DNA of 64,000 nucleotides from Pontederia crassipes (lineage: Eukaryota > Streptophyta > Magnoliopsida > Commelinales > Pontederiaceae): assembly GCA_030549335.1 (NCBI GenBank), contig CM060188.1:12816501-12880500 (forward strand). Reading direction: 5' to 3'. Within the stretch, counting starts at the first letter, position 1. Each line of letters begins with the position of its first letter. The notes below the pieces were generated by a model, which had not been told where the DNA came from, ran no database searches, and saw nothing but the letters and a program-made list of their open reading frames with translations. Shown here piece by piece: positions 1,150 to 50,276 of the stretch. Made by a program: the position numbers and the translations under genes.

Positions 1150-1900
1150 ATTGTCACCCTCCCCTCTTCGTTCGATGGCCGTCCTCGCCTCCTGGGTTCT
1201 TGTTTGCTGTCTTCATCTTGATGACCTTGTATAACATCTTGAACTCTCTCACCACGACTCCTTCCCAAACAGAAGTCTCACTCCTCGGCATGTCATCGGT
1301 GTTCAGCAGCTTTGTCGTCCACACCTTTCTTGGGCTTTGCTTCGTTGATGCTACCCTCCCGGCCTAAGCATCAACACAATCTTCAACGCCTTGTTCAGCG
1401 ACCCTCTGTTGGGTCAGGCTCATTTGTGCATCTGGAAGGCCTCCTTCACCTCGGGGTACAACTTGTAATCCTTGAGCCCCAGATAGCTGCTGGCCAGAGT
1501 CTTGAACGTCGAGAAGTTGCATAGTGGGAGTGGACGTGGACGTCGTGCTGCCCCAGACGGAGCACCACCGGCTCCACGCCCTCCGGTACCCAATAGTCAG
1601 TCATCATCGTGAACACTAGCACTTGCTCCTCGCCATAGTAGGAGAAGGCGTCGTCCATAAAATTGAGGATTCCGTTGAGTTGCGACTCGCTATTGCCGCT
1701 GATTGTTTTTAGGTACCGGTCCTCGATGATGATCGTGGATAGGCTCGACTGCATGATGCTCTCCTGCGCTTTGAGCACATGGTTCTCCAACGTTGGGTCG
1801 AAGTAAAGCTCCATGGTGTAACCCTTTTTGCCTTCCACCGTAACCTCCAGACACCGCCAGTCCTTGTTGCCTTGCTCGCACTACCAGTGGTGGTAGCAGC
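1150..1900 (-). pseudogene. BCS1-like AAA-ATPase pseudogene fragment
   Basis: On the minus strand several broken pieces match the plant BCS1-like (AATP1/ASD) mitochondrial AAA-ATPases. About 1838-1550 reads GYTMELYF, then STIIIED, which resembles the Walker B segment (SIIVIEDIDC). It goes on to QLNGILNFMDD, GEEQVLVFTM and VVLRLGQHDVHVH, which resemble the family's second region of homology (LSGLLNFIDGLW, GEERIIVFTTN, LLRPGRMDMHIH). After a frame change, about 1520-1420 reads FKTLASSYLGLKDYKLYPEV, the near-invariant C-terminal block of the family, then stops. The Walker A region is missing, so the N-terminal part is joined directly to the Walker B part. This is a decayed host gene; family assignment is from remembered motifs. 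No function is expected. Confidence 0.6.
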
Positions 1901-2146
1901 TGCGCTCCCCCTGTGCCTTGAGTCATGGCGGTTGCTGGTCTCGTGGCTAGATCAACACCACCACCTCAACGTTGGGTCGAAGTAAAGCTCCATGGTGTAA
2001 CCCTTTTTGCCTTCCATCGTAACCTCCAGACACCGCCAGTCCTTATTGCCTTGCTCGCACTACCAGTGGTGGTAGCAGCTGCGCTCCCCCTGTGCCTTGA
2101 GTCATGGCGGTTGCTGGTCTCGTGGCTAGATCAACACCACCACCTC
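1789..2146. repeat. 179-bp tandem duplication beside the AAA-ATPase remnant
   Basis: The stretch starting with CGTTGGGTCGAAG at 1791 is repeated starting at 1970, a period of 179 bp. The two copies differ at only a few positions. The first copy overlaps the 5' (minus-strand) end of the AAA-ATPase remnant, so the duplication happened within the pseudogene or its parent. Confidence 0.85.
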
Positions 2147-3620
2147 ATCGTGATGGCCGCCCGTCCCCATCTCGCCATCATTGCTGGCAGCTCCCTCTGT
2201 TAAGAATATAAAATAATAGATGTTGCTCTTCCTAACGGCTTAAGCTTTTAGGAAAACTAGTTAGCACATCAAATTTAACATGATATCAAAGCCAACCCGT
2301 TGAAGATCCTGCCGAGCTCCTTCGCCGTCAGCGCAACGAAGATCGTCTTCAAGCTCGCCATCGCTGGGTGAGCGCCATCAGCATACATGGCTCCAGCAAG
2401 CCCCGGCCAGCGTAGATCGAGGTCTTCGTCGCGTGTTGCTGCAGATCAGCAAGAACGATGTCGAGCGGCATCTGCATCGGGTGTTTTTCCCTTTTCTAGC
2501 TACTGATCAGAGTTTTTCTCCTTCATTTTCCCTCATTTCTTCGATCTTCTTTCTAGTTCTTCGTCTGCTCATTTTACTTGATTTCTTGATCGCTTTCTCC
2601 TTCTTCGTTCGTTGCTCCGTTGTCACTTTCTTGTGTTCTTCTTGATCTTCTGTTCGATTATCTTTGGGTCTTCTTCAAAGCTATTACAATTCCTTCCTTA
2701 GTCATGGCATATAAACTGAGTTCTTGAGCTCTACTTCCATACCAACAGTTATGTTATGTTCTTATGCTCTGTTCTTACTCTGATTGTGCTACAAAAGATC
2801 TCCGGCCAACTTGAGGGAGCTGGATTCTTAACATGTCCATCAGGTGCTCGATAAAATGCATCTTGTCAGCCACGTCCGATCCAGTTCCTTCTTCGATTTC
2901 TTCGTTTGTTTTCTGCATTTACTCATCGACTTCATCCAGTACTTCTTATATGTCTTTTTCGGCCACGGTTCTTATTCGTCATCTTTGTCTTCTTCTCTTT
3001 CGTTCTGCGTCGAGTTTGGCAAATTTCCCCTATTTTTCTTCTTCGAAATCTTGATAGACCATCCACTACTGCCCTGCGAGCAGCCTTCATGATGGCACCG
3101 CATGTATTCATCTTCAGTATCTGCACATTCCACTAAAGTGTTTGGATCATGAAGCTCATGTCGACCAATAAGATGGAAGTTATGTTTACAATGATCCTCA
3201 AGTCATCGGCGATGGAATAGCTAAGAGTTCCTCATGTCGCCTTTCTCCGGTAGTGGAATCGTGTTCTAGGCTTTCCTCAGGTCGTCTTTCTTGGTGATGG
3301 ATCGTGATTCCTTTCCATCAGGTGTTCGGCTTGTAGTGTGCATTTTCCGACGACTACAACTTCTATCGCAGTTGACAATTAATGGACATCTCTAGCTGCT
3401 ACTGTATCTCAAATTGCTTCATAGCTTACTCTCCAGCAGCGCCCAGTAAGTGTTCGATGATTTGCATGTTCTATGGCATCTGCATGCATCATCTCCTTGT
3501 TGTCTTCTCCGGTGATAGCTGCAACAGAAGGATGTTACGCCAGTGAGTTTCTCTTCCAACGACTTGAGATCTCCAAGTTGACGTCGTTCGGATGCTTTCC
3601 GCCGTCAACTTGCGGGGGCA

Positions 3621-24292: not shown

Positions 24293-24799
24293 GGATTTAA
24301 TGGGAGTCCTCCCCAATATAAGGGGGAGGACGCCCCTCCCCCCATCCGCGCCCGTCGGATGGGGATCCGACGGGCGTGACTTTCAATTTTAATTTTTTTT
24401 TTTAAATTCATTTTTTTCGATTTTTTTAATACGTTTTTTATCCTTTTTTAAATCCCTCTCCCTCTCTCCTCTCCCTCCCTCTCGCCCTCATCTCTCTTCT
24501 CCCTCTCTCTCTCCCTCTCTCTTCTCCCTCCCTCTCTCGCCCGACGTTGACGGCCGGATCTGACTGCGGCCGGCCAGATCTGGCCGCTCGGCAGCCGATT
24601 TGGCGCGGGCGGCCGGATCTGGCCGCCCAGCGGCTGCCCGCGTTCGATCGGCCGCCTAGGCGGCCGAATCTGGTTGCCAGCAGCTAGATCTGGCCGCTCG
24701 GTGGCCGATTTGGCACGGGCGGCCGGATCTGGCCGCCCAGCCGCTCTCGCCGAGGCCGCCGCCGTTCTCACCACCCTCGTCGCTCTCCAACCCCGTCGG

Positions 24800-25070
24800 G
24801 GATCTGCCCCGCCGCGCTCCGACCCCGCCCGGCCGCGCTCCGCCCCCACCCCACCGCGCTCCGACCCCGTCCCGCCGCGCTCTGACCCCATCCCGCCGCT
24901 CTGCGACCCCGCCCGGCCGCGCTCCGCCCCCGCCCTGCCGCGCTCCGACACCACCCCTCCACGCTCGGACCGCCCCGCCGCGCTCCGACCCCACCCCGTC
25001 GCGCTCCGCCCGCCCCGCCGCACACCGCCCCGCCGCGCTCCGCCACCGCTCCGCCACCGCCCCGCCCCGC
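24800..25070. repeat. GC-rich minisatellite, about 21-bp unit
   Basis: Repeated units of the form CCGCGCTCCGACCCCGCCC with small changes, about a dozen copies, inside the long-TIR element. Confidence 0.75.
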
Positions 25071-25687
25071 CGCGCTCCGCCCCGCCGCCGCCGCTCTTTC
25101 GCCCCGCCGCCGCCGTTCTCTTCCCCCGTCGCCGCCGTTCTCTCGCTCCGCCGTCCTCTTCCCCTGCTGCCGCCGTCCTCTCGCTCCCCCGTTGCTGTCC
25201 TCTCGCTCCGCCGCCGCCGTCCTCTCGCTCCCACTCGCCGTGACCTTCGCCTCTCCCACTCACCCACGCACCACCGCCTCGCCCACTCGCAGTCGCCGCA
25301 CGAGGATTGTGCGACCGCCCGACAACCCTCGCCGACCAAAGTAATCGAAGACAGCTATCTGCGATTACTGAATTTTTTAATTCGATTTACAATTTGGAGT
25401 TGTAATTTGGGTTTAATACCATGTACGATATGAGTAGATTACAAAATTTTTTTGAGTTGTAATTTGATGTACATATGTTGATAACTTTGTGTAAGAATTT
25501 ATTTGATGTGTAAGAATTTATTTGATGTGTAACAATTTTTTTGCTGAGCTTGCGCACCTCCGCCGAAGGGTTTTTCTTGTGTAATGTAATGTCGGAGTCG
25601 ATAATATGTACTTGCACCTTGATCAAAATGAAATTCACCTTTATGTTAGAATTAAAGAGGATTGGCTATATGTTCGAAAGCGAGATA

Positions 25688-25739
25688 GGATTCATCGCAG
25701 CTAAGTACGTTCGAGGATTCATCGCAGCTAAGTACGTTC
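25688..25739. repeat. two-copy 26-bp direct repeat
   Basis: GGATTCATCGCAGCTAAGTA with the following bases occurs twice back to back, in the AT-rich core of the long-TIR element. Confidence 0.85.
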
Positions 25740-26945
25740 GAAATTCGGGGAAACTAAGTCCGATGTTAGAAAGTGAGATACGGATGAATATGTGACAAGC
25801 TTCGTCGTTCCGAGAATGTAATACAAATGACAGACATGTAAAAGTGTACCAAATCCACACAAGCTTAACTAATCCACAACATGGATTAAAACAAAAAATT
25901 TACAGGATGAAGAATTAACGTGGATTAACAAAAAATTAGCTCGGCGGCGGGGGAGCGCGCTCGGCGGCGGTGAGCGATCTACTCGCGTCGTTGGTCGATA
26001 TCGGCGGCGAAGGGTCGCGAGCTCGGTGTCCCTTGGTACAAAGTCGGCGGCGGCGAGTGGGGCAGGCAGCGGGGGCTTCGAGGGCGAGATCGACCGTCGA
26101 GGGTGAGACTGACCGTCGAGGGCGCCGGTCGCCGGGCGAGGGTCGCGGGGCGGGCGAGAGTGGCGGTGGTGGGTGAGGTCAACGGCGTCGGGAGAGGCCA
26201 GCAACGGCGGGCGAGGTCGAGGGTCGCGGCGATGGATTACGAGGCGGTGGCGGCGGCGATGGATCGCAAGGCGGCGGCGAGGGGTCACGAGGCGGCGGCT
26301 GCGTCGGCGAGGAGTGAGGTCGAAGCGGATCTGATGCGGCGAGTGGGAAAGGCGGCCGAGGCTGCGAGGCGGCGAGAGGGGGGTGGCGACGGAGGCTGCG
26401 AGTCGGCGAGGCAACGGCGGCGGCAGAGGCTGTGAGTGGGCGAGGCGGCGGAGGCTGCGAGTGGGCGAGAGCGGCGGAGGGGGGCGAGAGCCCGCGGACG
26501 GGGGCGAGAGCGGTGGCCAGTTCTGACGCGAGCAACCACTGGGCAGCCAGATCCGGCCGCCCGCACCAAATCGGCCACCGAGCGGCCAGATCTGGCCGCT
26601 GGCAGCCAGATCCGGCCGCCGAGGAGGCCGATCGGACACGGGCAGCCGCTGGCCGGCCAGATCTGGCCGGCCGCAATCAAATCCGACCGCCGAGCGGCCA
26701 GATCTGGCCGCCAACGCCGGGCGAGAGAGGGAGGGAGAAGAGAGAGGGAGAGAGGGAGGGAGAAGAGAGATGAGGGCGAGAGGGAGGGAGAAGAGAGAGG
26801 GAGAGGTATCTAAAAAAAAAAGATCGAAAACGTATTAAAAAAAAGAAAATAGCTTTTAAAAAAAACTAAAATTGAAAGTCGCGCCCGTCGGATCCCCATC
26901 ACGGGCGCGGATGGGGGGAGGGCGGGGGGAGGACCTCCATTAAAT

Positions 26946-30764: not shown

Positions 30765-32554
30765 GTTTGTATTTTTGGGACAAATCGTTGTTTGTCATGA
30801 TATCTAACATGTGGAGAGAGGTGGGAATTAATTGAAGAATCTCCAAACAATTTTGATTAAAGGATCACATCACTGAAAGCTTAAATGAAAGTTGACTAGA
30901 TCACTTAGCCGTCAGCAGGACGACATGATGACGCAGTACTATAAGTCACGTTGGATCATCTCCACGTAACGTACGGCCGGACTGACAAACGGATGGACAG
31001 AATCTCGGCCGTCTTCTTGTCCCCCCGTCAAACTCTTTCTTCTTTTTCATATTTGATCCTCCGTTTCTGAGGACAAAAAATAAAAAAAGAATGACAATTA
31101 TTTTTCGTTTTACTTCCTAAATCTTAATATTAGTCATTTACCTTTTTTTATTTTACTTGCTAAATTTTAATATTAGTTATTTACCTCCACTCGACTTTTA
31201 AGACACATTCACTTAATCTAAACTTCTTAAGCGTGTCAAAAAAATTATTTATTCTTTGTTTTTTCGCTTGCACATTACCTTTTACCACATTGTTTTATTT
31301 AATCTATTAATTTTCTTAAAAGAGGAAAATAAATAAATAAATAATCAAATGCATCCATCTTCTTTATGGTCCTATTTGATTTTCTTATTTTTTATAATTT
31401 AAAATTGAATAAGGGTAAAGTATTTGAAAATTGAAGAGAACTAGATAGATAATAGGCGAAGCTAAAGGTATGGTATAATTTAGAGGAGCAAAATAAAATT
31501 AGCTCAGTAATAAAGAAAAATAACAAATCACCATGCCAACAACATATTTATTTGATCTACACGAACGTATTTTCCTAATCCGCAGGAGTTGCAGTTCATT
31601 TGAAAAGATACGTAGTTTCTCCAAATTGATTTCCTCGCTGAGAATCCGTTCGGGACTTAAAAAGGCCTGTATGTTTAAAGGCCCGGCCCATACATGCAAG
31701 ATTTCACTGTTGGGATTCAGATGACATCCTCTTTTGAACTTTTTTCGTGTGTTCCTGATGGGCTTTCTATCATCAATCATCTATTGATTCCATTCTGCTC
31801 TTTATTTTGTTTGCCTTTTTTTTCTTGATATATTTCTCCAAGGAAAATGATCGTATTGATTCACTTTGATTTGCATATTAATTCACCCTTTTGACATTGC
31901 TGTTTATGAAAGCCGAGGGGAATTGATTAGTCTTTAGGTTTTTTTTTCCATTAGCTAATAGTCGGTATCTAGGAAGCAGCATTAATTGTTCAATCTGCAC
32001 GACATACTAGTCACAAGTTGAAAGATAGGGCATCATCAGACTCAATTAATCTAGTAGAATCTTCTCGAATCACGTATCTTACAAGTTCATAAGAATTGGA
32101 ACTTGCTTAAGCTTACCATTCAAACAGTCCCGTTGGTGTCTTTAGGTTTATTGGGGTGAGGAACGAATGCATGAGTTTTTTTTTTTCAGAAATTGTTTGT
32201 CGTCGTAGAAATGGGTGAAGTATGGAAGCAAAAAACGGAAAAACAAAGTTGTGTAGGTTGGTTGGGCGATCAAATCAATTCATGTATGTCAGATGGCCCA
32301 GTTGAAACAATAGCTGTGGTAGTAGCTAAAAGCCTAAAAGAGATGAAGACTGGATGAAGGAAGTAGTGGCCAAAGGTGTTGAAGTCTGCTCTGTCTATCT
32401 GTCTGTCTGTGGCAGAAAGATTTTTCAGAACTTTGACAGTTTTCCACAATGGCATTGAAGGAGCAGGGGCAGTTAAGACAACAGTCGCATGTCAAAAACT
32501 TTTGCCCCAGACTAAAAAAATGGCAGGAGAGAAGAGGAAGATTGGTCTATGAAC
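30765..32554. other. intergenic DNA left of the tandem duplication
   Basis: No gene is seen. Short frames (for example 31499-31780, minus) have no recognisable match. Confidence 0.4.
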
Positions 32555-33514
32555 CCTAATGTCAATTTAATTTCCTACCTTCACTTTACACTTGAATCAT
32601 TTTGGTTAGTCTTTCTGCAGTCCCTTGATGTATGGGTGTTTCAATTTTTCCTTATAAAATTATAAATTTATGATGGCAAATTATAATTAACTTGTGAATC
32701 ACTAACAATACTATCGACATACAATCAAACGAATTGGGAAGGGTGATAGTTTGGGTATAAAAAAAATTACGGAACTATATAAAACTAATATGGAGAAAAA
32801 GTTTGAGAATCATGGATGAAATTTATCTTAAAAGAATCAGGAAAAGTATCATCAATCATCATGCTCTTATGTTTGATGCTATGTATATATTGTTCCATAC
32901 ACTTCTCATTTTGTGGTAGTCTTCATTAAAAACTTTGTATAATCTTTCAAACTAAAACATGATAATCTTGCATAATATAAATTCTAATATAAAAAGTCAG
33001 TAACCAAAATAAATTTTCAGCTATCATACACAACAATTTTGATTGAGAGTAAAAACTGTCATATTAATTATAATCCATGATCTCTCGTACGCACACAATG
33101 ACTTTTGCATGTACGTTATTTTTTTCTCTTAAACATAAAAGGTGTTAGGCTCAAATTGTAAATGGGCGCTTGACTCATTGCAATCTCGAAAATAACATTT
33201 GTTAGAACTTAGAAGTCAAAATCTTGACATTTGCTGTATTCATACATAAAAGATGGCCATGCGGATAAGCTAACAAGTGGACTTATTACAAGTTCGACAA
33301 GGCCAACAATTAATTAAATATCAAGAACAAATTAAGAACAACGTAAAAAAGCTCATAACATGTTGACCGATTAAGAATTTAAGAGCACTGCACCCCTTCC
33401 TTCCTGTTGTTACATACACTTCATCAAACACTTAATTAACCACGTACTTTCAAGCAAGAAAAACAAGTTTTTTGGTCGACGGCTTGCACCGATCTGCGCG
33501 CATGTTGGGCACTT

Positions 33515-35731
33515 TCAGCTGCTGGACGTCTTCATCTGCTCCAAGAACTCTGCCAGGTGGTCTTTCTCGACACACTGCGTCATGATCCGAGAACCCTTTG
33601 CCGGCGCCGGCGGTTCGCCAATGATGCCCACGGCCATGAAGTCCTGGTACGCGAAGGGTACGACGTGCACCGGCTTCCCCCACCCGTAGTCCACGTCGAG
33701 GAATCCCAGCCGCGTCCAGTCCGACACGAACAGCGACTCGTACGAGAACGTGAGCTCGTAGGGATCCTTCTCAAAGCCCCCCACCGCCCACCTGGCGAAC
33801 TCGTCAGGCAGCCTCGCCTTGGCGTCCCTGATGATCTTCACCACCTCGAGGAGTTCCCCCGCGGCGACCCGGCCGCTCTTCGCGCTGGCAGTCACAACGT
33901 AGAAGCAGTTGCCATAGAAGCCCCGACCCTCCGCCGGCAGCGCGTGCTGCAGCAGGTGGCGGACGTTGGCGAAGAAGCTGACGTGGACGTCGGCCTCCGG
34001 GTCCAGCCCGATGGCCCGCGTGCGGGCCTGCCAGGTCTTGGCGATGCACACGTCGAAAGTGGAGCAGCGCTCCCCGGCCTGCTCGAAGTACTGGGACTTA
34101 ACGCGGTTGATGAAGTCTAGCGAGATGTCCGTGACGGCGTAGAGGAGCTTGAAGGAGGGGAAGACGGGCGGGCCTTCCGGCGGGGGCTTTGGCGGGTTGG
34201 GCATCAGTTCCCGGGACCATATCGGCTCGATGGTAGGCTTGAGGAGACCGCGAGCGGCGTCGCCGATGGCGTTGATGAATTGGGCGGCGCCGAGGCCGTC
34301 GGCGAGGGTGTGGACGGAGATGAGACCGACGACGAAACCGCTGCATGTGAACTCAGTTACCTGCAGGTAGATTTTGTATTACTCAATTAATTGTGAAGTT
34401 ATATACATGCTTCACACATCTACCTCTTTGTGATACACATGCTGTTTTACGTCGCAATATTAAGTGCATGAACTGATGAACATCTATACTACGTTATAAA
34501 TTACGTCCATCAGACTGCATACACAATTTTACATATATTAATCTGTTGATAAATTTGGGTGTGGGATTCTCGAGAATCAAACTCAAACCTTTTAATTTTT
34601 GGAATTGAACGGTGAGGCAATGCGTCATATCATTTTCCCCAAATATCTCCTTGTTTATTATTTATTGAAATATTAATATGTACTAATATATAAGTTTGTT
34701 TGAACTATGTAAAATTATGGAAGAAAAAAGATAAGAAAAAGAAAAAAAATAGAATATGTAACGGAAGCCAAGAACTTGGACCTCGTTATATATGAGCTTA
34801 GTATTTTATCATCATTTTTTTTTCTTATAGTAAATCTTTTCTTACAAGGGTCTTTTGTTTACTATTCCCAACACATGCATATATGTATATATATTATGTT
34901 GAAACGACCGTACCAAATATGCAACTGTCCGTGACAAATTCAAAATATTATTATCGATATTAAAAACCTTATTGGTTGTATTTCAATGTCAATACTTGTA
35001 TTTTTGTCCATGAATCACAAACACTACTGCTGACTTTCTAACTCATTTTGATTGTCAAAATGACGAACATTTTTGAATCGATGGACCTCCTCATGGCGTC
35101 GATAATATTTTATACCATGACCCCACGAGTCTTTTCATTACTTAATGAAATATTTACCTTTAAAAAAAACGTTAACCATCCATGCAATGCACGACTTTCA
35201 TATGCACTTTAACAGCCTAAATCTGAACCATTTGATATTTATCATAGAAGGTTATTAGCTTATGTTCTTAAGGGGGCGGAATATTAGATAGATGGATAGA
35301 TGGATGTATACCTGCATCATCACAGGAAGGTTTAGAGGATCAAAGTCCGGGCTAGCCGTGGGAATGAGCTCCGCCTGAGGGATCAGTAGAGGGAAGTCCA
35401 GATACTTGACGTCCTCCAAGCTGCAATTGGCCTTGGCCTCGATGAACCAAGCGCCCTCACCGGTGCACTCGACAAGAACGTCTCCGGTGTGGCCGTGCCG
35501 ACCGGAGTCCACAAACCTCCCGGCGAAGGGGTAGTACTTCACCAGCGCCCGTGACAAGGCTTCCTTGATGACCCTGGTGGGCTGCTCTCCGTGCTTGAAC
35601 ACATGAAGGGACCTGACCAAGTGCCTGAGCCCGGCCACCCGGTCGATGACGGAGAGGTCGAGCGTCACCTTGGGCGTCGGCTCGCACGGCGGTACCAAGT
35701 ACTGAGACGTTCTGGTCACAGAGAAGGTCAT
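33515..35731 (-). CDS. BAHD acyltransferase, PMT/OsAT4-like (copy 1)
   Basis: Two exons, 35731-35312 and 34360-33515, separated by a 951-bp GT-AG intron in phase 0 after LPVMMQ, the usual BAHD intron position. The protein is 421 aa. The catalytic HXXXD motif is H157-TLA-D161, and the structural DFGWG motif reads DYGWG at 364-368. Blocks such as [44 protein letters not shown] and RIMTQCVE read closest to rice OsAT4/PMT, a p-coumaroyl-CoA:monolignol transferase. The enzyme should move an acyl group from a CoA thioester to an alcohol in the cytosol; p-coumarate to monolignols is inferred from the clade. The ATG at 35731 is the first in frame; the upstream open frame has no ATG. No motif is damaged. 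Confidence 0.92.
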
Positions 35732-35826
35732 AGTTGAAACACTCAGAGGTACGTAATATGAATTTGATTCGGAGGAGGATGGCAGAAGGCAATTGGCGTG
35801 TGCAAATGACCAAGGCAACGCTTGAG

Positions 35827-35836
35827 GTATAAATAG
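35827..35836 (-). promoter_or_regulatory. possible TATA box of BAHD copy 1
   Basis: On the minus strand CTATTTATAC lies about 100 bp before the ATG, a plausible TATA position. The + strand reading (TATAAATAG) is the stronger consensus, so orientation is not certain. Confidence 0.35.
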
Positions 35837-36592
35837 AGAGTGAGAGTGAGACGCTTGGGCTATAGATATAATACGTAGTCATGTATAATATGTATACTTA
35901 TTATATGTATATGTACACATATTTTAGGTATAAACACGTATAAAAAAAGTCAAAATCTGCCTGCCGAAGTCGTGTATGCATTCCCATTGACTAATTGAGA
36001 CTCAAACATGGTCACAATGCCTCAATTTATTTATTTTTGTTAACACAATGCTCCTAAAATTGACGAACCGCTAACAGAAAACTGGTTTCACATGGTCTTT
36101 GTTTGCAAATTATGGCACGCTTGTTGCTGGTTAATTTATTCAGTGTTTTCTTTTTAAATTTCAACTCCACCGAATAATTGTTCAGAAAAGTATTATTCAT
36201 AAATAATTAAATATATCATGAGTCAATCAAAAGACATCCGAGTTGTACTCGTTAACACTCTATACACGTAACATAGGAAAATGTTAAATCTTCCTAAAAC
36301 TTCAGCCTAAAACTCTTTTCTAATACTTACATTTTTTTAATTGCATTAAAAATTGACTAATTTGTAATTATGCCATTATGACTCAGGCTAAATCCTCCTA
36401 AATCAGGAGGATATAGCAAAACCCCACGTACATAAAATCTGGTTTGTACGTATGAGCAGCGAAAGAAGGAGCCTACTTTCGTTCGCACGAGAATTGGTCA
36501 AAGGAGACTCTCCGCACATGCACGTGCCCTTTCCTATGTAATCACGTATGAATAGAGTCTCCACTGGGATCACAATATTCTCTGTCACATAC

Positions 36593-37150
36593 GGGGCCTC
36601 GCGGGGAATTTTCGATCAAGCTCCGAATTCAAAAAATTTTCTCCCCGCAGAGTCGGAGATAAGGGAAAATTATCCCCGAACCATCTTTCGGAGATCGAGA
36701 CGAGGGAGTTGTCTCCGCCCCGCGAGATCCCGAAGAAAAAGTGAGTGTACAACAATAGTCCCACATTGATAGTAGTAGAAAAGTGAGGGTAAATAAATAA
36801 GTATAAATGAATGAGAAAACTAATGGGTCAATATTGAATGTTTATGTAGAAAGTCCACCTTAAATATTTTCCAAATTTATAATAATATTTTTTATCAAAT
36901 TATCTCTTACTAAAAAATTAATAAAAAATTTTTATTGAACAAAAAAATACGGTTCAATTCGATTTTTTTCGATTTTGACCAATTTTTTATCGGTTCAATT
37001 CTGTTTAATTCGGTCCAAACTAGGATCGAGTCGTGAGGTTCAGAATTCTCGTGAGGATTCGAGACCCGCAAGGATCAGGGCGGGAGATAAAATTTTTTTC
37101 GAACCAAAAATTCGAAGCGGGGTCGGAGGCGAGGGCGGGGAACGATCCAC
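36593..37150. repeat. inverted-repeat element in duplication unit 1
   Basis: A GC-rich left arm (GCCTCGCGGGGAATTTTCGA, 36597) and a right arm ending GAGGCGAGGGCGGGGAACG are imperfect inverted relatives. They surround an AT-rich middle with 'cggttcaattcg' phrases typical of dispersed plant repeats. The element lies 0.9-1.4 kb upstream of the BAHD start and is the core of the diverged patch. Confidence 0.4.
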
Positions 37151-37799
37151 CCTTGTCTGCACTACTGGATGTGGCAACTCTTTTTTTTTTAACTCGGTTT
37201 GTTTAATCATTAATTAATAGGGTTCGATAAATTCTACCATAGAACATGCCTTCGGATCGTGGGACGTAAGCATAAAAAATATTTGTTTAAAATTTTATTC
37301 GTCGTTATTAATTGAGTTTGATGACGGGTCAACCTCTAATTTGTAAATTCTTATGATTAAATTGTCGACGCCATTTTTTAAACGTCGGGAATTGATAACT
37401 TAAAAAAATCGTGGGATGTGCAATGGACTAATTATGTGCATAGTTGAGTACTTTGGATAACTTATTTTGGCTCTACTTAATGTCTTGGTTTCATTTGTAT
37501 GATTGTTTAAATTCATATTCATAACAAATTTCCATGTAACCTAAAAAAATATTGAATTTCCCTAACTACTCTCGCAATAATGAGATGTGCGAATACGGAA
37601 CGTCCGTCAAATTAGTCATTAACGATTTGAAATTATAATTCATAATTAGTGTTCATATCTTATATCTTTTAGTGGCACGTGAATGGATAACCATTTGGGG
37701 AGCAATTACGTACTTGAACTCGAAGTAGTGACGAATAATTGTGTGATACATCCATTGAAATTAAATAGATAAGTCATAATTAGTGGAATAAGGAATAGG

Positions 37800-38316
37800 A
37801 GTATTTTCATAAATCTTCTCTAAATTATCATAATTTTTTATATTTAACTCTAAACAACTTTTTTTTCGAATCCATAAAGTGACTTTTTCACATTAGTCAT
37901 TCTGTCTTGTTATATTTTTATTTTTTTATTTATGTAAAGATTAAATTACTAACTTTTACTATTTTCATTTATATTTACTTTTATTTTTTGCTTAATACAT
38001 AAAAAAATAAAAAGAAGTAAAAAGAAAAAAATTTCAACAAATGTTGATCTAGGTTGCACGCAAAAGAGGAGTGAAAGCCTTCCTCACTTTTTTCATTTTT
38101 ATTTTTTATACTTATTATTTGATGTATTACGAAGGAGAGGTAATTTAGTCTTTTCATAAATAAGAAAAATAATAAAATTAATAGAAGTGGATGAAAGGAT
38201 ATGAAAAAATTATGATAGTTTAGGAATATAAAAAATAAGTTCGTAGTTTGAATTTAGATACGAAAAATCATGATAATTTAGGAGAGATTTTTAAAAATAT
38301 ACTTTATGCAGACAAT
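37800..38316. repeat. MITE-like TIR element in unit 1
   Basis: The left end (TATTTTCATAAATCTTCTCT, followed by AAATTATCATAATTT) is an imperfect inverted match of roughly 45 bp to the right end near 38270-38316. The interior is AT-rich and non-coding. Confidence 0.45.
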
Positions 38317-41300
38317 AAAATGATAATGTTAAAATTATCCAATTAATCATATTTGTAACGTGCACGTAGTAGTAGTAAAGTTGGGGGAATTGACCCACAC
38401 TATATACTTACTTTTCGGTTACGTTTAGTAATCGAACGTTCTCTTTTTCGACAAATGACGTGACTTTTTTATTTTGCAAATTCTTTTTTCTTTTAATTTT
38501 TTATTCTTTTTAGCTATCTCATATATAATAATTTATTTATTATGTGTAAAATATGAATAATAAAGAATTAATATAATAATATTTATTACTTATTATTTCA
38601 TCAAAAAATTCAATATTTAATTAAAAATAATTTATTTAAAAAGATTTTTATTTTTAAATAATATATTTTAAAACCAATTTTTTAGTAAAAAATTTATAAC
38701 TTATTTTATTTTTATTTTTATTTACTAACAATATTATATTTTCTATTTACAATACCACTTTTTAATTCAAAATTCATCAAAAATTAATAATCACATCTAT
38801 TTTCTACTAACTAATATATTAAATCGAACTATTTATTAAAATTCGGAGAAACTTTTGTTTCAGTTGCCAAACATAGCCTTCGAATTTTTATCTCTTGGTA
38901 CATGCGCTCTGGCAAGAGAAATAGTAATTTCTCCGAGTTCTTGTATTAACTTTGAGTGTATTTGAACGCATTAAATGTAATGATAAGATTTGATTAGAAG
39001 AAACTGTTTTCTTTTAATTTTTGTGTCATTTATCACATATTTGAAGACGTTACGTGGAAGGAAGGAGTTGATTTCAATCAATTCTAATTATCAATCGATA
39101 AATAAAAATATGTATTTTTAAATATGAACGTCATATATCGTGTACAGAACTCTTGTATGTATAATAATATATCCAATTACTCGAGTCAATTAGCTGCTGA
39201 GCAGCCAGTTCGCAGGGCCTGTTGCCCATCTGTTCAGACCGTGCAATCTATTCAATGCGTCTGGCATCCAAAACAATCCGGTCGAGCGGAAATTTGAAAT
39301 CAAATCAGATTGGTCCGACAACAGTCAGATTACCAAATTTATCAATTTATTCTAAAATTAAACCGATTTGATTTATGTCAAAATTTAAAATTAAAATATA
39401 TTAAATTATCATATTCTATTTTGTGAATGTTTAATATTGTGTTCTAAAAGGAATATAAAAATTAATGATCATATTATGTGTAGGACCTGAGTTCTAATTT
39501 TCTCACAAAGTTGACCCGGATCTCTAATCCGGGAAGCGACCACTGTAGCCATTCCATTAATATTTCACCGAAAATAAGAAAAAACTACATCAGCAACGTT
39601 ATGGGCCTGATTTAAGCCCAGTTGATTGTTCAGCAATTACCCGGCCCGGAAAAAGCCACTTGAATATTGTAGAATCCGAAATTTCTCTACACATTTCGGC
39701 CTCATATTTTGTGGCCTATGTTGGCTTACGAATTGAGTGGAAATTAACAATAAAAAAATAGTATTTATGAGAATAAGAGAGCTGCATCCTCTTAAATTTT
39801 GACCTAAAAATCTGTCTAACATATAAAGTTATCAATTTTTAGGAGTATATTTATTATGAAAGTATTTTTAGGAGGATTTAAATCTTTTTTTTTTCTTATG
39901 AGAATACAAATGGATACCCAAATGCATTCAAGATGCAAGATAAAAATGATGGTTATTGAGCAACAAATTGTGTTACTTGGAATTCGATGAATTATCTTGC
40001 AACATTAACAATCTGGATTATATTAAAATTATCAATAATGATTAACGCTCTATTTAGTGTACGTTGGATAATACGTCAATGCATTATACTTTATTATATA
40101 CCCAACTACACTTTATCAGAGATTCCAAGAAACAAAGCTTGAGTTTTCTTATGTCATTGTCGTGTGGGTAGAGTTTTGAAAAGTAATGAAAGAAGATGAA
40201 ATGAAAAACAAAGTGACATCAATTCTTTTGTGTTCAACCACAGAACATTCTCCAATAATTTTTTTGATCTCATGAATGGAAGATGAACTGTCCTTTATTC
40301 TTTTGTTTTTATTCCAATAGGAAAATCTAAATATATAAACCGAAAACTTAGATCTCCCAACTTTCTTCCCCACTTTTTTTGAATAAGTTTATTTGTCTTA
40401 ACTCATAAATCAAAATGTCTCCAATTTGAATTCTACTTGTCAAGAGTGTTCTTTATTTTAATTTATTTTCGTCATACCATGTCTTTAATTTTTTTATAAA
40501 ATAACAATATAGTAAACAACTATTTTTTTCTAGTCAAGGTTTAAGATCTATCAATCCAAAATTACTAGTTCAATATTCGAACGCGACATGATTTTTAAGT
40601 TGGTGTTTATTTTTTTGTCAATAATGGAACATAATTTTATTAACTACTTATGCTAGCCAAAGTTAGCAAATAATCTATCTGAATTTTTAATTCATTATTA
40701 TTTGCGCTCACTTTTGGGAGGAGAATCCTTCTTCTACCTCCTTTAAATTTTCATATTAGGACTTCTTGGATCTTTTTAATTAATAGATTAACTTCTTTCC
40801 GTAAGAAAAAAAAAACAGCACACAAAGCAAAAAGTGCCTTGTTGATATGTCTCTTTCTTGGTTTCATTCCCATGACTGCATCCAACAACTTCTCCCCAGA
40901 AGTTAGTGCCCCCATATGGTACACCCAACCCAACTCAAATTCACCACCAACTTTGGTCTTTCAACTCAAATGTGGCCCAACTCAAAAGTGTAGCAACCCT
41001 TTGAAAAAACACCTAATGTCAATTTAATTTCCTACCTTCACTTTACACTTGAATCATTTTGGTTAGTCTTTCTGCAGTCCCTTGATGTATGGGTGTTTCA
41101 ATTTTTCCTTATAAAATTATAAATTTATGATGGCAAATTATAATTAACTTGTGAATCACTAACAATACCATCGACATACAATCAAACGAATTGGGAAGGG
41201 TGATAGTTTGGGTATAAAAAAAAATTACGGAACTATATAAAACTAATATGGAGAAAAAGTTTGAGAATCATGGATGAAATTTATCTTAAAAGAATCAGGA

Positions 41301-41974
41301 AAAGTATCATCAATCATCATGCTCTTATGTTTGATGCTATGTATATATTGTTCCATACACTTCTCATTTTGTGGTAGTCTTCATTAAAAACTTTGTATAA
41401 TCTTTCAAACTAAAACATGATAATCTTGCATAATATAAATTCTAATATAAAAAGTCAGTAACCAAAATAAATTTTCAGCTATCATACACAACAATTTTGA
41501 TTGAGAGTAAAAACTGTCATATTAATTATAATCCATGATCTCTCGTACGCACACAATGACTTTTGCATGTACGTTATTTTTTTTTCTCTTAAACATAAAA
41601 GGTGTTAGGCTCAAATTGTAAATGGGCGCTTGACTCATTGCAATCTCGAAAATAACATTTGTTAGAACTTAGAAGTCAAAATCTTGACATTTGCTGTATT
41701 CATACATAAAAGATGGCCATGCGGATAAGCTAACAAGTGGACTTATTACAAGTTCGACAAGGCCAACAATTAATTAAATATCAAGAACAAATTAAGAACA
41801 ACGTAAAAAAGCTCATAACATGTTGACCGATTAAGAATTTAAGAGCACTGCACCCCTTCCTTCCTGTTGTTACATACACTTCATCAAACACTTAATTAAC
41901 CACGTACTTTCAAGCAAGAAAAACAAGTTTTTTGGTCGACGGCTTGCACCGATCTGCGCGCATGTTGGGCACTT

Positions 41975-44191
41975 TCAGCTGCTGGACGTCTTCATCTGCT
42001 CCAAGAACTCTGCCAGGTGGTCTTTCTCGACACACTGCGTCATGATCCGAGAACCCTTTGCCGGCGCCGGCGGTTCGCCAATGATGCCCACGGCCATGAA
42101 GTCCTGGTACGCGAAGGGTACGACGTGCACCGGCTTCCCCCACCCGTAGTCCACGTCGAGGAATCCCAGCCGCGTCCAGTCCGACACGAACAGCGACTCG
42201 TACGAGAACGTGAGCTCGTAGGGATCCTTCTCAAAGCCCCCCACCGCCCACCTGGCGAACTCGTCAGGCAGCCTCGCCTTGGCGTCCCTGATGATCTTCA
42301 CCACCTCGAGGAGTTCCCCCGCGGCGACCCGGCCGCTATTCGCGCTGGCAGTCACAACGTAGAAGCAGTTGCCATAGAAGCCCCGACCCTCCGCCGGCAG
42401 CGCGTGCTGCAGCAGGTGGCGGACGTTGGCGAAGAAGCTGACGTGGACGTCGGCCTCCGGGTCCAGCCCGATGGCCCGCGTGCGGGCCTGCCAGGTCTTG
42501 GCGATGCACACGTCGAAAGTGGAGCAGCGCTCCCCGGCCTGCTCGAAGTACTGGGACTTAACGCGGTTGATGAAGTCTAGCGAGATGTCCGTGACGGCGT
42601 AGAGGAGCTTGAAGGAGGGGAAGACGGGCGGGCCTTCCGGCGGGGGCTTTGGCGGGTTGGGCATCAGTTCCCGGGACCATATCGGCTCGATGGTAGGCTT
42701 GAGGAGACCGCGAGCGGCGTCGCCGATGGCGTTGATGAATTGGGCGGCGCCGAGGCCGTCGGCGAGGGTGTGGACGGAGATGAGACCGACGACGAAACCG
42801 CTGCATGTGAACTCAGTTACCTGCAGGTAGATTTTGTATTACTCAATTAATTGTGAAGTTATATACATGCTTCACACATCTACCTCTTTGTGATACACAT
42901 GCTGTTTTACGTCGCAATATTAAGTGCATGAACTGATGAACATCTATACTACGTTATAAATTACGTCCATCAGACTGCATACACAATTTTACATATATTA
43001 ATCTGTTGATAAATTTGGGTGTGGGATTCTCGAGAATCAAACTCAAACCTTTTAATTTTTGGAATTGAACGGTGAGGCAATGCGTCATATCATTTTCCCC
43101 AAATATCTCCTTGTTTATTATTTATTGAAATATTAATATGTACTAATATATAAGTTTGTTTGAACTATGTAAAATTATGGAAGAAAAAAGATAAGAAAAA
43201 GAAAAAAAATAGAATATGTAACGGAAGCCAAGAACTTGGACCTCGTTATATATGAGCTTAGTATTTTATCATCATTTTTTTTTCTTATAGTAAATCTTTT
43301 CTTACAAGGGTCTTTTGTTTACTATTCCCAACACATGCATATATGTATATATATTATGTTGAAACGACCGTACCAAATATGCAACTGTCCGTGACAAATT
43401 CAAAATATTATTATCGATATTAAAAACCTTATTGGTTGTATTTCAATGTCAATACTTGTATTTTTGTCCATGAATCACAAACACTACTGCTGACTTTCTA
43501 ACTCATTTTGATTGTCAAAATGACGAACATTTTTGAATCGATGGACCTCCTCATGGCGTCGATAATATTTTATACCATGACCCCACGAGTCTTTTCATTA
43601 CTTAATGAAATATTTACCTTTAAAAAAAACGTTAACCATCCATGCAATGCACGACTTTCATATGCACTTTAACAGCCTAAATCTGAACCATTTGATATTT
43701 ATCATAGAAGGTTATTAGCTTATGTTCTTAAGGGGGCGGAATATTAGATAGATGGATAGATGGATGTATACCTGCATCATCACAGGAAGGTTTAGAGGAT
43801 CAAAGTCCGGGCTAGCCGTGGGAATGAGCTCCGCCTGAGGGATCAGTAGAGGGAAGTCCAGATACTTGACGTCCTCCAAGCTGCAATTGGCCTTGGCCTC
43901 GATGAACCAAGCGCCCTCACCGGTGCACTCGACAAGAACGTCTCCGGTGTGGCCGTGCCGACCGGAGTCCACAAACCTCCCGGCGAAGGGGTAGTACTTC
44001 ACCAGCGCCCGTGACAAGGCTTCCTTGATGACCCTGGTGGGCTGCTCTCCGTGCTTGAACACATGAAGGGACCTGACCAAGTGCCTGAGCCCGGCCACCC
44101 GGTCGATGACGGAGAGGTCGAGCGTCACCTTGGGCGTCGGCTCGCACGGCGGTACCAAGTACTGAGACGTTCTGGTCACAGAGAAGGTCAT
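41975..44191 (-). CDS. BAHD acyltransferase, PMT/OsAT4-like (copy 2)
   Basis: Second copy of the gene at 33515-35731, shifted by exactly 8460 bp, with exons 44191-43772 and 42820-41975 and the same intron. The 421-aa product differs from copy 1 at one residue only, K301 to N, from one base (33878 C against 42338 A on the + strand). HXXXD (157-161) and DYGWG (364-368) are intact. Residue 301 lies in TASA(K/N)SGR, outside both motifs, so activity should be similar. The shared upstream sequence suggests the same expression at first, doubling dosage if both are transcribed. Alternatively one copy is an assembly artefact, though the substitutions argue against a simple duplicate contig. Confidence 0.9.
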
Positions 44192-44286
44192 AGTTGAAAC
44201 ACTCAGAGGTACGTAATATGAATTTGATTCGGAGGAGGATGGCAGAAGGCAATTGGCGTGTGCAAATGACCAAGGCAACGCTTGAG

Positions 44287-44296
44287 GTATAAATAG
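44287..44296 (-). promoter_or_regulatory. possible TATA box of BAHD copy 2
   Basis: Identical site, same distance from the copy 2 ATG. Confidence 0.35.
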
Positions 44297-45050
44297 AGAG
44301 TGAGAGTGAGACGCTTGGGCTATAGATATAATACGTAGTCATGTATAATATGTATACTTATTATATGTATATGTACACATATTTTAGGTATAAACACGTA
44401 TAAAAAAAGTCAAAATCTGCCTGCCGAAGTCGTGTATGCATTCCCATTGACTAATTGAGACTCAAACATGGTCACAATGCCTCAATTTATTTATTTTTGT
44501 TAACACAATGCTCCTAAAATTGACGAACCGCTAACAGAAAACTGGTTTCACATGGTCTTTGTTTGCAAATTATGGCACGCTTGTTGCTGGTTAATTTATT
44601 CAGTGTTTTCTTTTTAAATTTCAACTCCACCGAATAATTGTTCAGAAAAGTATTATTCATAAATAATTAAATATATCATGAGTCAATCAAAAGACATCCG
44701 AGTTGTACTCGTTAACACTCTATACACGTAACATAGGAAAATGTTAAATCTTCCTAAAACTTCAGCCTAAAAATCTTTCTAATACTTACATTTTTTTAAT
44801 TGCCTTAAAAATTGACTAATTTGTAATTATGCCATTATGACTCAGGCTAAATCCTCCTAAATCAGGAGGATATAGCAAAACCCCACGTACATAAAATCTG
44901 GTTTGTACGTATGAGCAGCGAAAGAAGGAGCCTAATTTCGTTCGCACGAGAATTGGTCAAAGGAGACTCTCCGCACATGCACGTGCCCTTTCCTATGTAA
45001 TCACGTATGAATAGAGTCTCCACTGGGATCACAATATTCTCTGTCACATA

Positions 45051-45610
45051 CCGGGCCTCGCGGGGAATTTTCGATCAAGCTCCGAATTCAAAAAATTTTC
45101 TCCCCGCAGAGTCGGAGATAAGGGAAAATTATCTCCGAACCATCTTTCGGAGATCGAGACGAGGAAGTTGTCTCCGCCCCGCGAGATCCCGAAGAAAAAG
45201 TGAGTGTACAACAATAGTTCCACATTGATAGTAGTAGGAAAGTGAGGATAAATAAATAAGTATAAATGAATGAGAAAACTAATGGGTCAATATTGAATGT
45301 TTATGGAGAAAGTCCACCTTAAATATTTTCCAAATTTATAATAATATTTTTTATCAAATTATCTCTTACTAAAAAATTAATAAAAAAATTTGATTGAACA
45401 AAAAAAATACGGTTCAATTCGATTTTTTTCGATTTTGACCAATTTTTTATCGGTTCAATTCTGTTTAATTCGGTCCAAACTAGGATCGAGTCGTGAGGTT
45501 CAGAATTCTCGTGAGGATTCGAGACCCGCAAGGATCAGGGCGGGAGAGAAAATTTTTTCCGAACCAAAAATTCGAAGCAGGGTCGGAGGCGAGGGCGGGG
45601 AACGATCCAC
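45051..45610. repeat. inverted-repeat element in duplication unit 2
   Basis: Counterpart of the element at 36593-37150, with many more differences than the rest of the duplicated unit. Confidence 0.4.
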
Positions 45611-46258
45611 CCTTGTCTGCACTACTGGATGTGGCAACTCTTTTTTTTAACTCGGTTTGTTTAATCATTAATTAATAGGGTTCGATAAATTCTACCATAG
45701 AACATGCCTTCGGATCGTGGGACGTAAGCGTAAAAAATATTTGTTTAAAATTTTATTCGTCGTTATTAATTGAGTTTGATGACGGATCAACCTCTAATTT
45801 GTAAATTCTTATGATTAAATTGTCGACGCCATTTTTTAAACGTCGGGAATTGATAACTTAAAAAAATCGTGGGATGTGCAATGGACTAATTATGTGCATA
45901 GTTGAGTACTTTGGATAACTTATTTTGGCTCTACTTAATGTCTTGGTTTCATTTGTATGATTGTTTAAATTCATATTCATAACAAATTTCCATGTAACCT
46001 AAAAAAATATTGAATTTCCCTAACTACTCTCGCAATAATGAGATGTGCGAATACGGAACGTCCGTCAAATTAGTCATTAACGATTTGAAATTATAATTCA
46101 TAATTAGTGTTCATATCTTATATCTTTTAGTGGCACGTGAATGGATAACCATTTGGGGAGCAATTACGTACTTGAACTCGAAGTAGTGACGAATAATTGT
46201 GTGATACATCCATTGAAATTAAATAGATAAGTCATAATTAGTGGAATAAGGAATAGGA

Positions 46259-46777
46259 GTATTTTCATAAATCTTCTCTAAATTATCATAATTTTTTATA
46301 TTTAACTCTAAACAACTTTTTTTTCGAATCCATAAAGTGACTTTTTCACATTAGTCATTCTGTCTTGTTATTTTTTTATTTTTTTATTTATGTAAAGATT
46401 AAATTACTAACTTTTACTATTTTCATTTATATTTACTTTTATTTTTTGCTTAATACATAAAAAAATAAAAAGAAGTAAAAAGAAAAAAATTTCAACAAAT
46501 GTTGATCTAGGTTGCACGCAAAAGAGGAGTGAAAGCCTTCCTCACTTTTTTCATTTTTATTTTTTATACTTATTATTTGATGTATTACGAAGGAGAGGTA
46601 ATTTAGTCTTTTCATAAATAAGAAAAATAATAAAATTAATAGAAGTGGATGAAAGGATATGAAAAAATTATGATAGTTTAGGAATATAAAAAATAAGTTC
46701 GTAGTTTGAATTTAGATACGAAAAATCATGATAATTTAGGAGAGATTTTTAAAAATATACTTTATGCAGACAATAAA
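46259..46777. repeat. MITE-like TIR element in unit 2
   Basis: Counterpart of 37800-38316; present in both units, so it inserted before the 8.46-kb duplication. Confidence 0.45.
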
Positions 46778-49471
46778 ATGATAATGTTAAAATTATCCAA
46801 TTAATCATATTTGTAACGTGCACGTAGTAGTAGTAAAGTTGGGGGAATTGACCCACACTATATACTTACTTTTCGGTTACGTTTAGTAATCGAACGTTCT
46901 CTTTTTCGACAAATGACGTGACTTTTTTATTTTGCAAATTCTTTTTTCTTTTAATTTTTTATTCTTTTTAGCTATCTCATATATAATAATTTATTTATTA
47001 TGTGTAAAATATGAATAATAAAGAATTAATATAATAATATTTATTACTTATTATTTCATCAAAAAATTCAATATTTAATTAAAAATAATTTATTTAAAAA
47101 GATTTTTATTTTTAAATAATATATTTTAAAACCAATTTTTTAGTAAAAAATTTATAACTTATTTTATTTTTATTTTTATTTACTAACAATATTATATTTT
47201 CTATTTACAATACCACTTTTTAATTCAAAATTCATCAAAAATTAATAATCACATCTATTTTCTACTAACTAATATATTAAATCGAACTATTTATTAAAAT
47301 TCGGAGAAACTTTTGTTTCAGTTGCCAAACATAGCCTTCGAATTTTTATCTCTTGGTACATGCGCTCTGGCAAGAGAAATAGTAATTTCTCCGAGTTCTT
47401 GTATTAACTTTGAGTGTATTTGAACGCATTAAATGTAATGATAAGATTTGATTAGAAGAAACTGTTTTCTTTTAATTTTTGTGTCATTTATCACATATTT
47501 GAAGACGTTACGTGGAAGGAAGGAGTTGATTTCAATCAATTCTAATTATCAATCGATAAATAAAAATATGTATTTTTAAATATGAACGTCATATATCGTG
47601 TACAGAACTCTTGTATGTATAATAATATATCCAATTACTCGAGTCAATTAGCTGCTGAGCAGCCAGTTCGCAGGGCCTGTTGCCCATCTGTTCAGACCGT
47701 GCAATCTATTCAATGCGTCTGGCATCCAAAACAATCCGGTCGAGCGGAAATTTGAAATCAAATCAGATTGGTCCGACAACAGTCAGATTACCAAATTTAT
47801 CAATTTATTCTAAAATTAAACCGATTTGATTTATGTCAAAATTTAAAATTAAAATATATTAAATTATCATATTCTATTTTGTGAATGTTTAATATTGTGT
47901 TCTAAAAGGAATATAAAAATTAATGATCATATTATGTGTAGGACCTGAGTTCTAATTTTCTCACAAAGTTGACCCGGATCTCTAATCCGGGAAGCGACCA
48001 CTGTAGCCATTCCATTAATATTTCACCGAAAATAAGAAAAAACTACATCAGCAACGTTATGGGCCTGATTTAAGCCCAGTTGATTGTTCAGCAATTACCC
48101 GGCCCGGAAAAAGCCACTTGAATATTGTAGAATCCGAAATTTCTCTACACATTTCGGCCTCATATTTTGTGGCCTATGTTGGCTTACGAATTGAGTGGAA
48201 ATTAACAATAAAAAAATAGTATTTATGAGAATAAGAGAGCTGCATCCTCTTAAATTTTGACCTAAAAATCTGTCTAACATATAAAGTTATCAATTTTTAG
48301 GAGTATATTTATTATGAAAGTATTTTTAGGAGGATTTAAATCTTTTTTTTTTCTTATGAGAATACAAATGGATACCCAAATGCATTCAAGATGCAAGATA
48401 AAAATGATGGTTATTGAGCAACAAATTGTGTTACTTGGAATTCGATGAATTATCTTGCAACATTAACAATCTGGATTATATTAAAATTATCAATAATGAT
48501 TAACGCTCTATTTAGTGTACGTTGGATAATACGTCAATGCATTATACTTTATTATATACCCAACTACACTTTATCAGAGATTCCAAGAAACAAAGCTTGA
48601 GTTTTCTTATGTCATTGTCGTGTGGGTAGAGTTTTGAAAAGTAATGAAAGAAGATGAAATGAAAAACAAAGTGACATCAATTCTTTTGTGTTCAACCACA
48701 GAACATTCTCCAATAATTTTTTTGATCTCATGAATGGAAGATGAACTGTCCTTTATTCTTTTGTTTTTATTCCAATAGGAAAATCTAAATATATAAACCG
48801 AAAACTTAGATCTCCCAACTTTCTTCCCCACTTTTTTTGAATAAGTTTATTTGTCTTAACTCATAAATCAAAATGTCTCCGATTTGAATTCTACTTGTCA
48901 AGAGTGTTCTTTATTTTAATTTATTTTCGTCATACCATGTCTTTAATTTTTTTATAAAATAACAATATAGTAAACAACTATTTTTTTCTAGTCAAGGTTT
49001 AAGATCTATCAATCCAAAATTACTAGTTCAATATTCGAACGCGACATGATTTTTAAGTTGGTGTTTATTTTTTTGTCAATAATGGAACATAATTTTATTA
49101 ACTAATTATGCTAGCCAAAGTTAGCAAATAATCTATCTGAATTTTTAATTCATTATTATTTGCGCTCACTTTTGGGAGGAGAATCCTTCTTCTACCTCCT
49201 TTAAATTTTCATATTAGGACTTCTTGGATCTTTTTAATTAATAGATTAACTTCTTTCCGTAAGAAAAAAAAACAGCACACAAAGCAAAAAGTGCCTTGTT
49301 GATATGTCTCTTTCTTGGTTTCATTCCCATGACTGCATCCAACAACTTCTCCCCAGAAGTTAGTGTCCCCATATGGTACACCCAACCCAACTCAAATTCA
49401 CCACCAACTTTGGTCTTTCAACTCAAATGTGGCCCAACTCAAAAGTGTAGCAACCCTTTGAAAAAACACCT

Positions 49472-50276
49472 TTTTCATACTAACCATAACTCATGATGGT
49501 TACTCAAATCAGTAACTCAACATAAAAAGAGACGTATTAGAATGCAATCATAATTTGTAATTACATCACACAATTTCATACTTTTGGACTATGAGATTAT
49601 CATTATATTAATTTAACAATCCAAATTACTTATATTATGAATCATGAGATCAAAATGATTCCAATCTGATGACTCAATTTAATTTGATGACCTAGAACTA
49701 TGTGATTGCAAGACGCACCCTAATATAACTGATTGAACTATGTGATTCCCATCATTGATTGCACCTTAATATAACTAATAAAAAAATTTTATATATTAAT
49801 TTATGGATCAATATATTATTTGACTCAAGGTCACTAATAAATTTTAATTCAAAAAATCTTCCAAGAATTAAATCATATGTTCATTTATGTGGTCTTAAAA
49901 GTTTTGTCAAGTCTAATAATCTAATTGAATGTTCTGAGCGAAAGTTTAAAATGATCTACGCCTGACTAATCCGGCGACATCTGGGGGGAAAAGCCGTCAC
50001 CATCGACTTGTTAGCGTCTTGTCTTCGATTTGCACTGCAACAGACACAACGGAGCCACCTCTCAGAACAAAAAACCACCATTAGCAGCGAAGCGAGGAGG
50101 GGCAGACCCTCATCTCCTTCCACATGCACCTAATCCTCTTCTTCCACGCCACTCCAAACCATCCAAACTTATCGGAGGCTTCTTCCGAAATCTCAATTTT
50201 CCTGTCAAAAGTTTCAGATCCGGCCTGCTTGCTTCTGTTCTGTGATCTCAATTTTATTCTGTTTCCTCCCTCTTGA
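49472..50276. other. single-copy DNA between the duplication and TPK; TPK promoter and leader
   Basis: AT-rich up to about 49960, then more GC-rich towards the TPK start, as expected for promoter and 5' leader. A 71-codon frame at 50030-50245 has no recognisable match. Confidence 0.4.

What the first reader, a model, noticed from the sequence alone, without database searches (positions are those of the whole stretch)
32555..49471. Very young 8.46-kb head-to-tail duplication carrying a whole BAHD acyltransferase gene
Units 32555-41011 and 41012-49471 are near-identical, including introns, promoter and transposon fossils. The 1266-nt coding sequences differ by one base. Such a duplication could double dosage of a probable p-coumaroyl transferase, or vary among individuals. 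It could also be an assembly artefact, but the scattered real differences argue for two loci.
Basis: seen in the sequence. Interest (0 to 1): 0.72.

Follow-up and report, generated by a model that had tools for sequence, protein, structure and literature searches.

The report
Young tandem duplication, one older block
A plant acyltransferase gene and its surroundings (8.46 kb) appear to have been copied head to tail recently, and a 1-kb stretch upstream of the gene differs about twenty times more between the two copies than the rest, so the pair has a mixed history.

Summary
The duplication is in the sequence at the stated coordinates: 32555-41011 and 41012-49471 are 99.6% identical. A homeologous stretch of contig C5 is collinear and has one copy. 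It aligns across both outer joints, so the junction at 41011/41012 is the new one. That junction shows only a 3-bp microhomology (CCT) and no repeat, which fits end joining or template switching and argues against repeat-driven recombination or misassembly.

Of 23 substitutions, 17 lie in 1,016 bp (36313-37328), 0.6-1.6 kb upstream of the start codon. That block differs 1.7%, the rest 0.08%. Of 16 block sites that could be polarised, 8 are derived in copy A and 8 in B: two long-separated lineages, not errors or fast change in one copy. No donor was seen among the 40 best places scored.

Best reading: a young duplication in which one copy holds a 1-kb tract from a diverged allele. Less likely: an older duplication homogenised elsewhere. 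The one coding change (K301N, derived in B) is at a variable site. The gene is an intact BAHD gene; p-coumaroyl activity and copy-number effects are untested.

The parts
32555..41011 (.). Duplicated unit, copy A
41012..49471 (.). Duplicated unit, copy B, ending with the third copy of the CCT microhomology
41012..41014 (.). New junction with 3-bp microhomology CCT (also at 32555-32557 and 49469-49471); outer joints are ancestral by comparison with C5
35312..35731 (-). Copy A BAHD gene, exon 1
33515..34360 (-). Copy A BAHD gene, exon 2 (stop at low end)
43772..44191 (-). Copy B BAHD gene, exon 1
41975..42820 (-). Copy B BAHD gene, exon 2; codon 301 AAT (N) versus AAG (K) in A, at 42338
   Evidence: the C5 homeologue has K
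36313..37328 (.). Diverged block in copy A: 17 of 23 A/B substitutions, 1.7% versus 0.08% elsewhere
44773..45786 (.). Same block in copy B
36564..37154 (.). 591-bp dispersed repeat insertion inside the block, absent from C5; 12 of the 17 block substitutions
36275..36424 (.). About 150-bp dispersed repeat (MITE-like, my label) at the left edge of the block

Best explanation
A single-copy BAHD acyltransferase locus on contig C6 was duplicated in tandem by a break-repair event joined through a 3-bp microhomology (shown: single-copy layout in the homeologue, new junction, no repeat at the breakpoints; inferred: end joining or replication template switching). It was recent: outside the block the copies differ at 6 of 7,440 sites, about 1.4% of the noncoding divergence between the homeologues. 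A roughly 1-kb stretch upstream of the gene in one copy came from a diverged allele of the same locus, by non-crossover gene conversion or a double exchange after the duplication, or because the duplication joined two haplotypes that differed there (inferred). Both reading frames are intact, so the likely effect is a second dose of the same enzyme with slightly different upstream sequence (inferred, not tested).
For: Identity and copy number. C5 is collinear with window 22-64 kb, with one copy of the gene in the 50 kb read; it aligns across 32555 (96%) and, with gaps, across 49471 (74-76%). Junction microhomology CCT; no significant repeat between the 2-kb stretches centred on the outer breakpoints (best E 0.11). 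17 of 23 substitutions in 1,016 bp. Block sites polarised: 8 derived in A (36313, 36345, 36779, 36847, 36933, 37099, 37272, 37328), 8 in B (36593, 36675, 36706, 36760, 36789, 36929, 37088, 37119), 1 unresolved (36476). The block extends past the 591-bp repeat on both sides (5 of 17 sites outside it; density not different, p = 0.33). The 38 other scored places of the repeat are 77-85% identical, and none reaches the block's flanks by more than a few bases (40 of 1,799 candidates scored). The flanks left and right of the block have similarly low divergence (2 of 3,758 and 4 of 3,683), as expected if one event set both.
Against: No reads, second haplotype or related accession was available, so no diverged allele that could be the donor was seen. 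Only the best 40 candidates of a genome search are scored, and the separate searches for the right flank and the junction did not complete. Sites 37272 and 37328 are polarised on an alignment of about 75% identity. The repeat copies used for 14 sites are only about 80% identical to the unit and several columns are not unanimous; at 36593, 4 of 19 copies carry B's base when B is the query and 0 of 24 when A is.
Confidence: 0.58

Rival explanations
1. The duplication is older (about the age of the 1.7% block), and later gene conversion or unequal exchange between A and B homogenised the gene, proximal promoter and distal half, leaving the 1-kb block as the only unconverted island.
For: The block is symmetric, 8 derived changes in each copy, as in two tandem copies ageing independently. 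Long identical tandem repeats are known to exchange sequence (established knowledge).
Against: Needs at least two long conversion tracts (about 3.7 kb on each side) reaching both ends of the unit and of similar age (2 of 3,758 and 4 of 3,683 substitutions); one duplication plus one tract needs fewer events.
Confidence: 0.22
2. Assembly artefact: two haplotypes of one locus laid end to end, or a mis-join.
For: 0.27% overall difference is within the range of allelic differences in plants (general knowledge), and a mosaic of SNP-poor and SNP-rich stretches is what two haplotypes can look like. No reads were available to exclude it.
Against: No N in the window. The breakpoints share no repeat that an assembler could have used as an overlap, only 3 bp. 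The outer joints align with the homeologue.
Confidence: 0.12
3. Block caused by ectopic conversion from another copy of the dispersed repeat, by hypermutation of a methylated repeat, or by polishing errors in the repeat.
For: 12 of 17 block substitutions lie in the 591-bp repeat, which belongs to a large family (1,799 first-look candidates).
Against: The block overhangs the repeat on both sides with a density that is not different; the 38 other scored copies are 77-85% identical; changes fall 8:8 in the two copies; 9 of 17 are transitions and 3 of 17 touch a CpG.
Confidence: 0.04

Closest known systems
Recent tandem segmental duplication / copy-number variant in plants with microhomology junction (reviews PMC12073271, PMC4544587: search listing and abstract starts only)
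   Same: Head-to-tail unit of several kb, near-identical copies, 3-bp microhomology at the new junction, complete gene inside
   Different: Contains one 1-kb block with about twentyfold higher divergence; population frequency unknown
Mosaic tandem duplicates shaped by gene conversion (general knowledge; one search gave a search listing only)
   Same: Sharp change in divergence along an otherwise uniform duplicate pair
   Different: Here one short old block in a young pair; donor not seen
BAHD acyltransferases (Pfam PF02458)
   Same: Match over residues 3-416, 189.8 bits; HTLAD and DYGWG read in the protein; one intron
   Different: Donor and acceptor unknown; best solved relatives are BEBT-like 9uod and coumarin synthase 8dqo

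Membership tests
Recent tandem segmental duplication | Two adjacent near-identical direct copies | tested here: met
   99.62% over 8,468 columns
Recent tandem segmental duplication | Single copy is the ancestral state | tested here: met
   collinear single-copy C5 homeologue aligned across both outer joints (one outgroup only)
Recent tandem segmental duplication | Uniformly low divergence along the unit (typical, not strictly defining) | tested here: not met
   17 of 23 substitutions in 12% of the length
Recent tandem segmental duplication | Physical junction present in DNA molecules | not testable with these tools
   no reads
NAHR-generated duplication | Homologous repeats at both breakpoints | tested here: not met
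   best match E 0.11; only CCT shared at the joint
BAHD acyltransferase | Transferase domain PF02458 over the full length | tested here: met
   189.8 bits, cut-off 22.7, residues 3-416
BAHD acyltransferase | HXXXD and DFGWG-type motifs (motif names recalled) | tested here: met
   HTLAD and DYGWG read in the translation; DYGWG also in 9uod and 8yi2. DYGWG departs from DFGWG by one residue
Mitchell-clade p-coumaroyl/feruloyl transferase | Groups with the rice OsAT proteins in clade Va | not testable with these tools
   no named plant reference set; the PDB ranking is not decisive
Mitchell-clade p-coumaroyl/feruloyl transferase | p-coumaroyl-CoA donor activity | not testable with these tools
   needs an enzyme assay

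The most novel reading that the evidence does not exclude
An older tandem pair in which the gene, its proximal promoter and the distal half are kept identical by conversion while a 1-kb upstream repeat-bearing block escapes and diverges freely, so that the two genes keep one protein but drift apart in regulation, in a lineage whose homeologous copy on C5 carries a CACTA-like sequence in place of the corresponding promoter.
Probability: 0.15. Interest if true: 0.5.

Novelty: new member of a known kind. Interest (0 to 1): 0.33.

Why it matters
A fresh gene duplication with a readable junction, a single-copy homeologue for comparison and an internal block of a different age is a clean case for seeing how young plant duplicates form and then exchange sequence. 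It also warns that one average identity can hide two ages. If the enzyme acts on cell-wall or defence phenolics, copy number could affect the phenotype, but nothing here shows that.

Tried and rejected
Conversion from the C5 homeologue as the source of the block: rejected, C5 lacks the 591-bp insert and aligns there only in pieces of 74-97%. Ectopic donor: none among the 40 scored of 1,799 candidates. Hypermutation of one copy: not supported, 8:8 split. Repeat-mediated unequal crossing-over: no repeat at the breakpoints. The three-way MAFFT alignment was poor across the block, so polarisation there used BLAST alignments. At 40909 (outside the block) MAFFT gave a third base in C5, BLAST with A as query gave A's base and BLAST with B as query a gap; I count it as probably derived in B. 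A check of PMC9070852 for six terms found none. Species: the contig layout (C1-C16 of 38-85 Mb, C17-C20 of 9-19 Mb, the other 23 of 43 contigs not looked at) resembles tetraploid water hyacinth as described in PMC10938897 (passages: 8 chromosome pairs, 1.22 Gb). Against it: that paper gives chromosomes of 46-104 Mb and a larger total. Not tested further. That C13 and C14 form a homeologue pair is a guess from both being about 84% identical to the gene; they were not compared with each other. K301N as a functional change: C5 has K, the C13 and C14 paralogues P, and 8dqo, 9uod and 8yi2 have K, S and T at the aligned place, so the site is variable.

Full report
Observation. Comparing the window with itself gives one large direct repeat: 32552-41014 against 41008-49471, 8,468 columns, 99.62% identity, 23 mismatches and 7 gap openings. 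A 1-kb probe (34000-35000) has two 100% places in the 1.13-Gb assembly, both in this window, and next an 88% place on C5 (40 of 83 candidates scored).

The gene. On the minus strand each unit holds a two-exon gene: exon 1 35312-35731 and exon 2 33515-34360 in A, 43772-44191 and 41975-42820 in B; 1,266 nt, 421 aa. One base differs, codon 301 AAG (K) in A, AAT (N) in B. The protein matches Pfam PF02458 over 3-416 with 189.8 bits and carries HTLAD and DYGWG. Best of 31 solved relatives are a BEBT-like acyltransferase (9uod, 5.6e-47) and coumarin synthase (8dqo, 1.3e-46); a ferulate monolignol transferase (7w26) is far down at 6.4e-11. The review PMC9887202 (passages) puts the grass hydroxycinnamoyl transferases in clade Va; no named plant reference set was at hand, so 'p-coumaroyl transferase' stays a guess.

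Ancestral layout. C5:56444000-56493999, reversed, is collinear with window 22-64 kb and holds one copy of the gene. It aligns across the left joint (32300-32741, 96%) and, with gaps, across the right joint (49343-49528, 74-76%). The junction at 41011/41012 is therefore the new one. Coding difference to C5 is 29 of 1,266 sites, dN 0.014 and dS 0.055 by NG86, dS 0.081 by YN00; noncoding divergence over alignable columns is 204 of 3,487, 5.9%. The outer breakpoints share no repeat: the best match between 2-kb stretches centred on them has E 0.11. A 3-bp microhomology fits end joining or template switching and is hard to obtain from an assembler's overlap.

The differences are clustered. 17 of 23 substitutions lie between 36313 and 37328; the largest count in any 1,016-bp stretch in 100,000 random placements was 13. 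Densities are 0.0167 (95% interval 0.0097-0.0268) in the block and 0.00081 (0.0003-0.0018) outside, about 29% and 1.4% of the noncoding divergence from C5. Six indels, all in runs of one base, three in the block and three outside, were left out. The block lies 582 to 1,597 bp upstream of the start codon.

What the block is. C5 lacks a 591-bp stretch, 36564-37154, which belongs to a dispersed family with 1,799 first-look candidates; 40 were scored, and the 38 other than A and B are 77-85% identical and reach at most a few bases into the block's flanks. At the left edge is a 150-bp dispersed repeat, 36275-36424. The block overhangs the 591-bp insert on both sides: 12 substitutions in 591 bp and 5 in the other 425 bp, not a different density (p = 0.33).

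Direction of change. Twelve sites in the insert were compared with 28 other copies (19 to 28 of them readable per site): 8 are derived in B, 4 in A by the majority base; columns are not all unanimous, and at 36593 the count depends on which copy is the query. Sites 36313 and 36345 carry B's base in 4 of 4 other copies of the small repeat, so A is derived. Sites 37272 and 37328 agree with B in C5, on an alignment of about 75%. 36476 is unresolved because C5 has a third base. The total is 8 derived in A, 8 in B, 1 unresolved. Outside the block, 32712, 33878 and 40423 are derived in B, 40909 probably in B, and 40647 in A; 37914 has no outgroup. A symmetric split means two lineages that had long been apart, not errors or rapid change in one copy.

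Interpretation. The simplest history is a recent tandem duplication and one tract of about 1 kb from a diverged allele. The flanks left and right of the block have similarly low divergence (2 of 3,758; 4 of 3,683), as one duplication event would give. The rival, an old duplication homogenised on both sides of the block, needs at least two long conversion tracts. If the species is water hyacinth, whose subgenomes are dated about 6.4 million years apart and whose heterozygosity is given as 0.76% (PMC10938897, passages), the duplication would be roughly 0.1 million and the block roughly 2 million years old; the species was not tested, so these are illustrations only.

Limits. No reads, no second haplotype and no relative were available. 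Many genome searches did not complete. Copy-number variation and dosage remain open.

Noticed in passing
L009:6572-6731 (C5 homeologue, upstream of the gene): In C5, homology to the window promoter stops 14 bp upstream of the start codon, close to a CACTACAAGAAAA sequence that looks like a CACTA-transposon end (my inference; the string occurs in the radish CACTA paper PMC7210773, search listing only). Window 35746-36448 is missing there; of it, 35746-36274 was found only in A and B among 40 scored of 361 candidates. The C5 copy may have altered expression. The search for this C5 piece did not complete.
   Followed up: partly
C5, between the equivalents of window 37501 and 39061 (loci L015, L016, L009): 14.3 kb in C5 stand in place of 1.6 kb in the window. 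Self-comparison shows one direct repeat pair of 258 bp, 86% identical, near the two ends, possibly terminal repeats of an element.
   Followed up: partly
L013:4203-6915 (C13 paralogue): Exon 2 of the C13 paralogue is interrupted by a 2.7-kb insertion flanked by a 9-bp near-perfect direct repeat (8 of 9), so this copy is probably inactive.
   Followed up: partly
window 1788-2151: A 185-bp direct repeat at 179-bp spacing, 98% identical, perhaps another recent small tandem duplication.
   Followed up: no
window 24334-26922: Inverted repeat arms of about 410 bp, 85% identical, in a stretch with many long overlapping open frames that look spurious.
   Followed up: no
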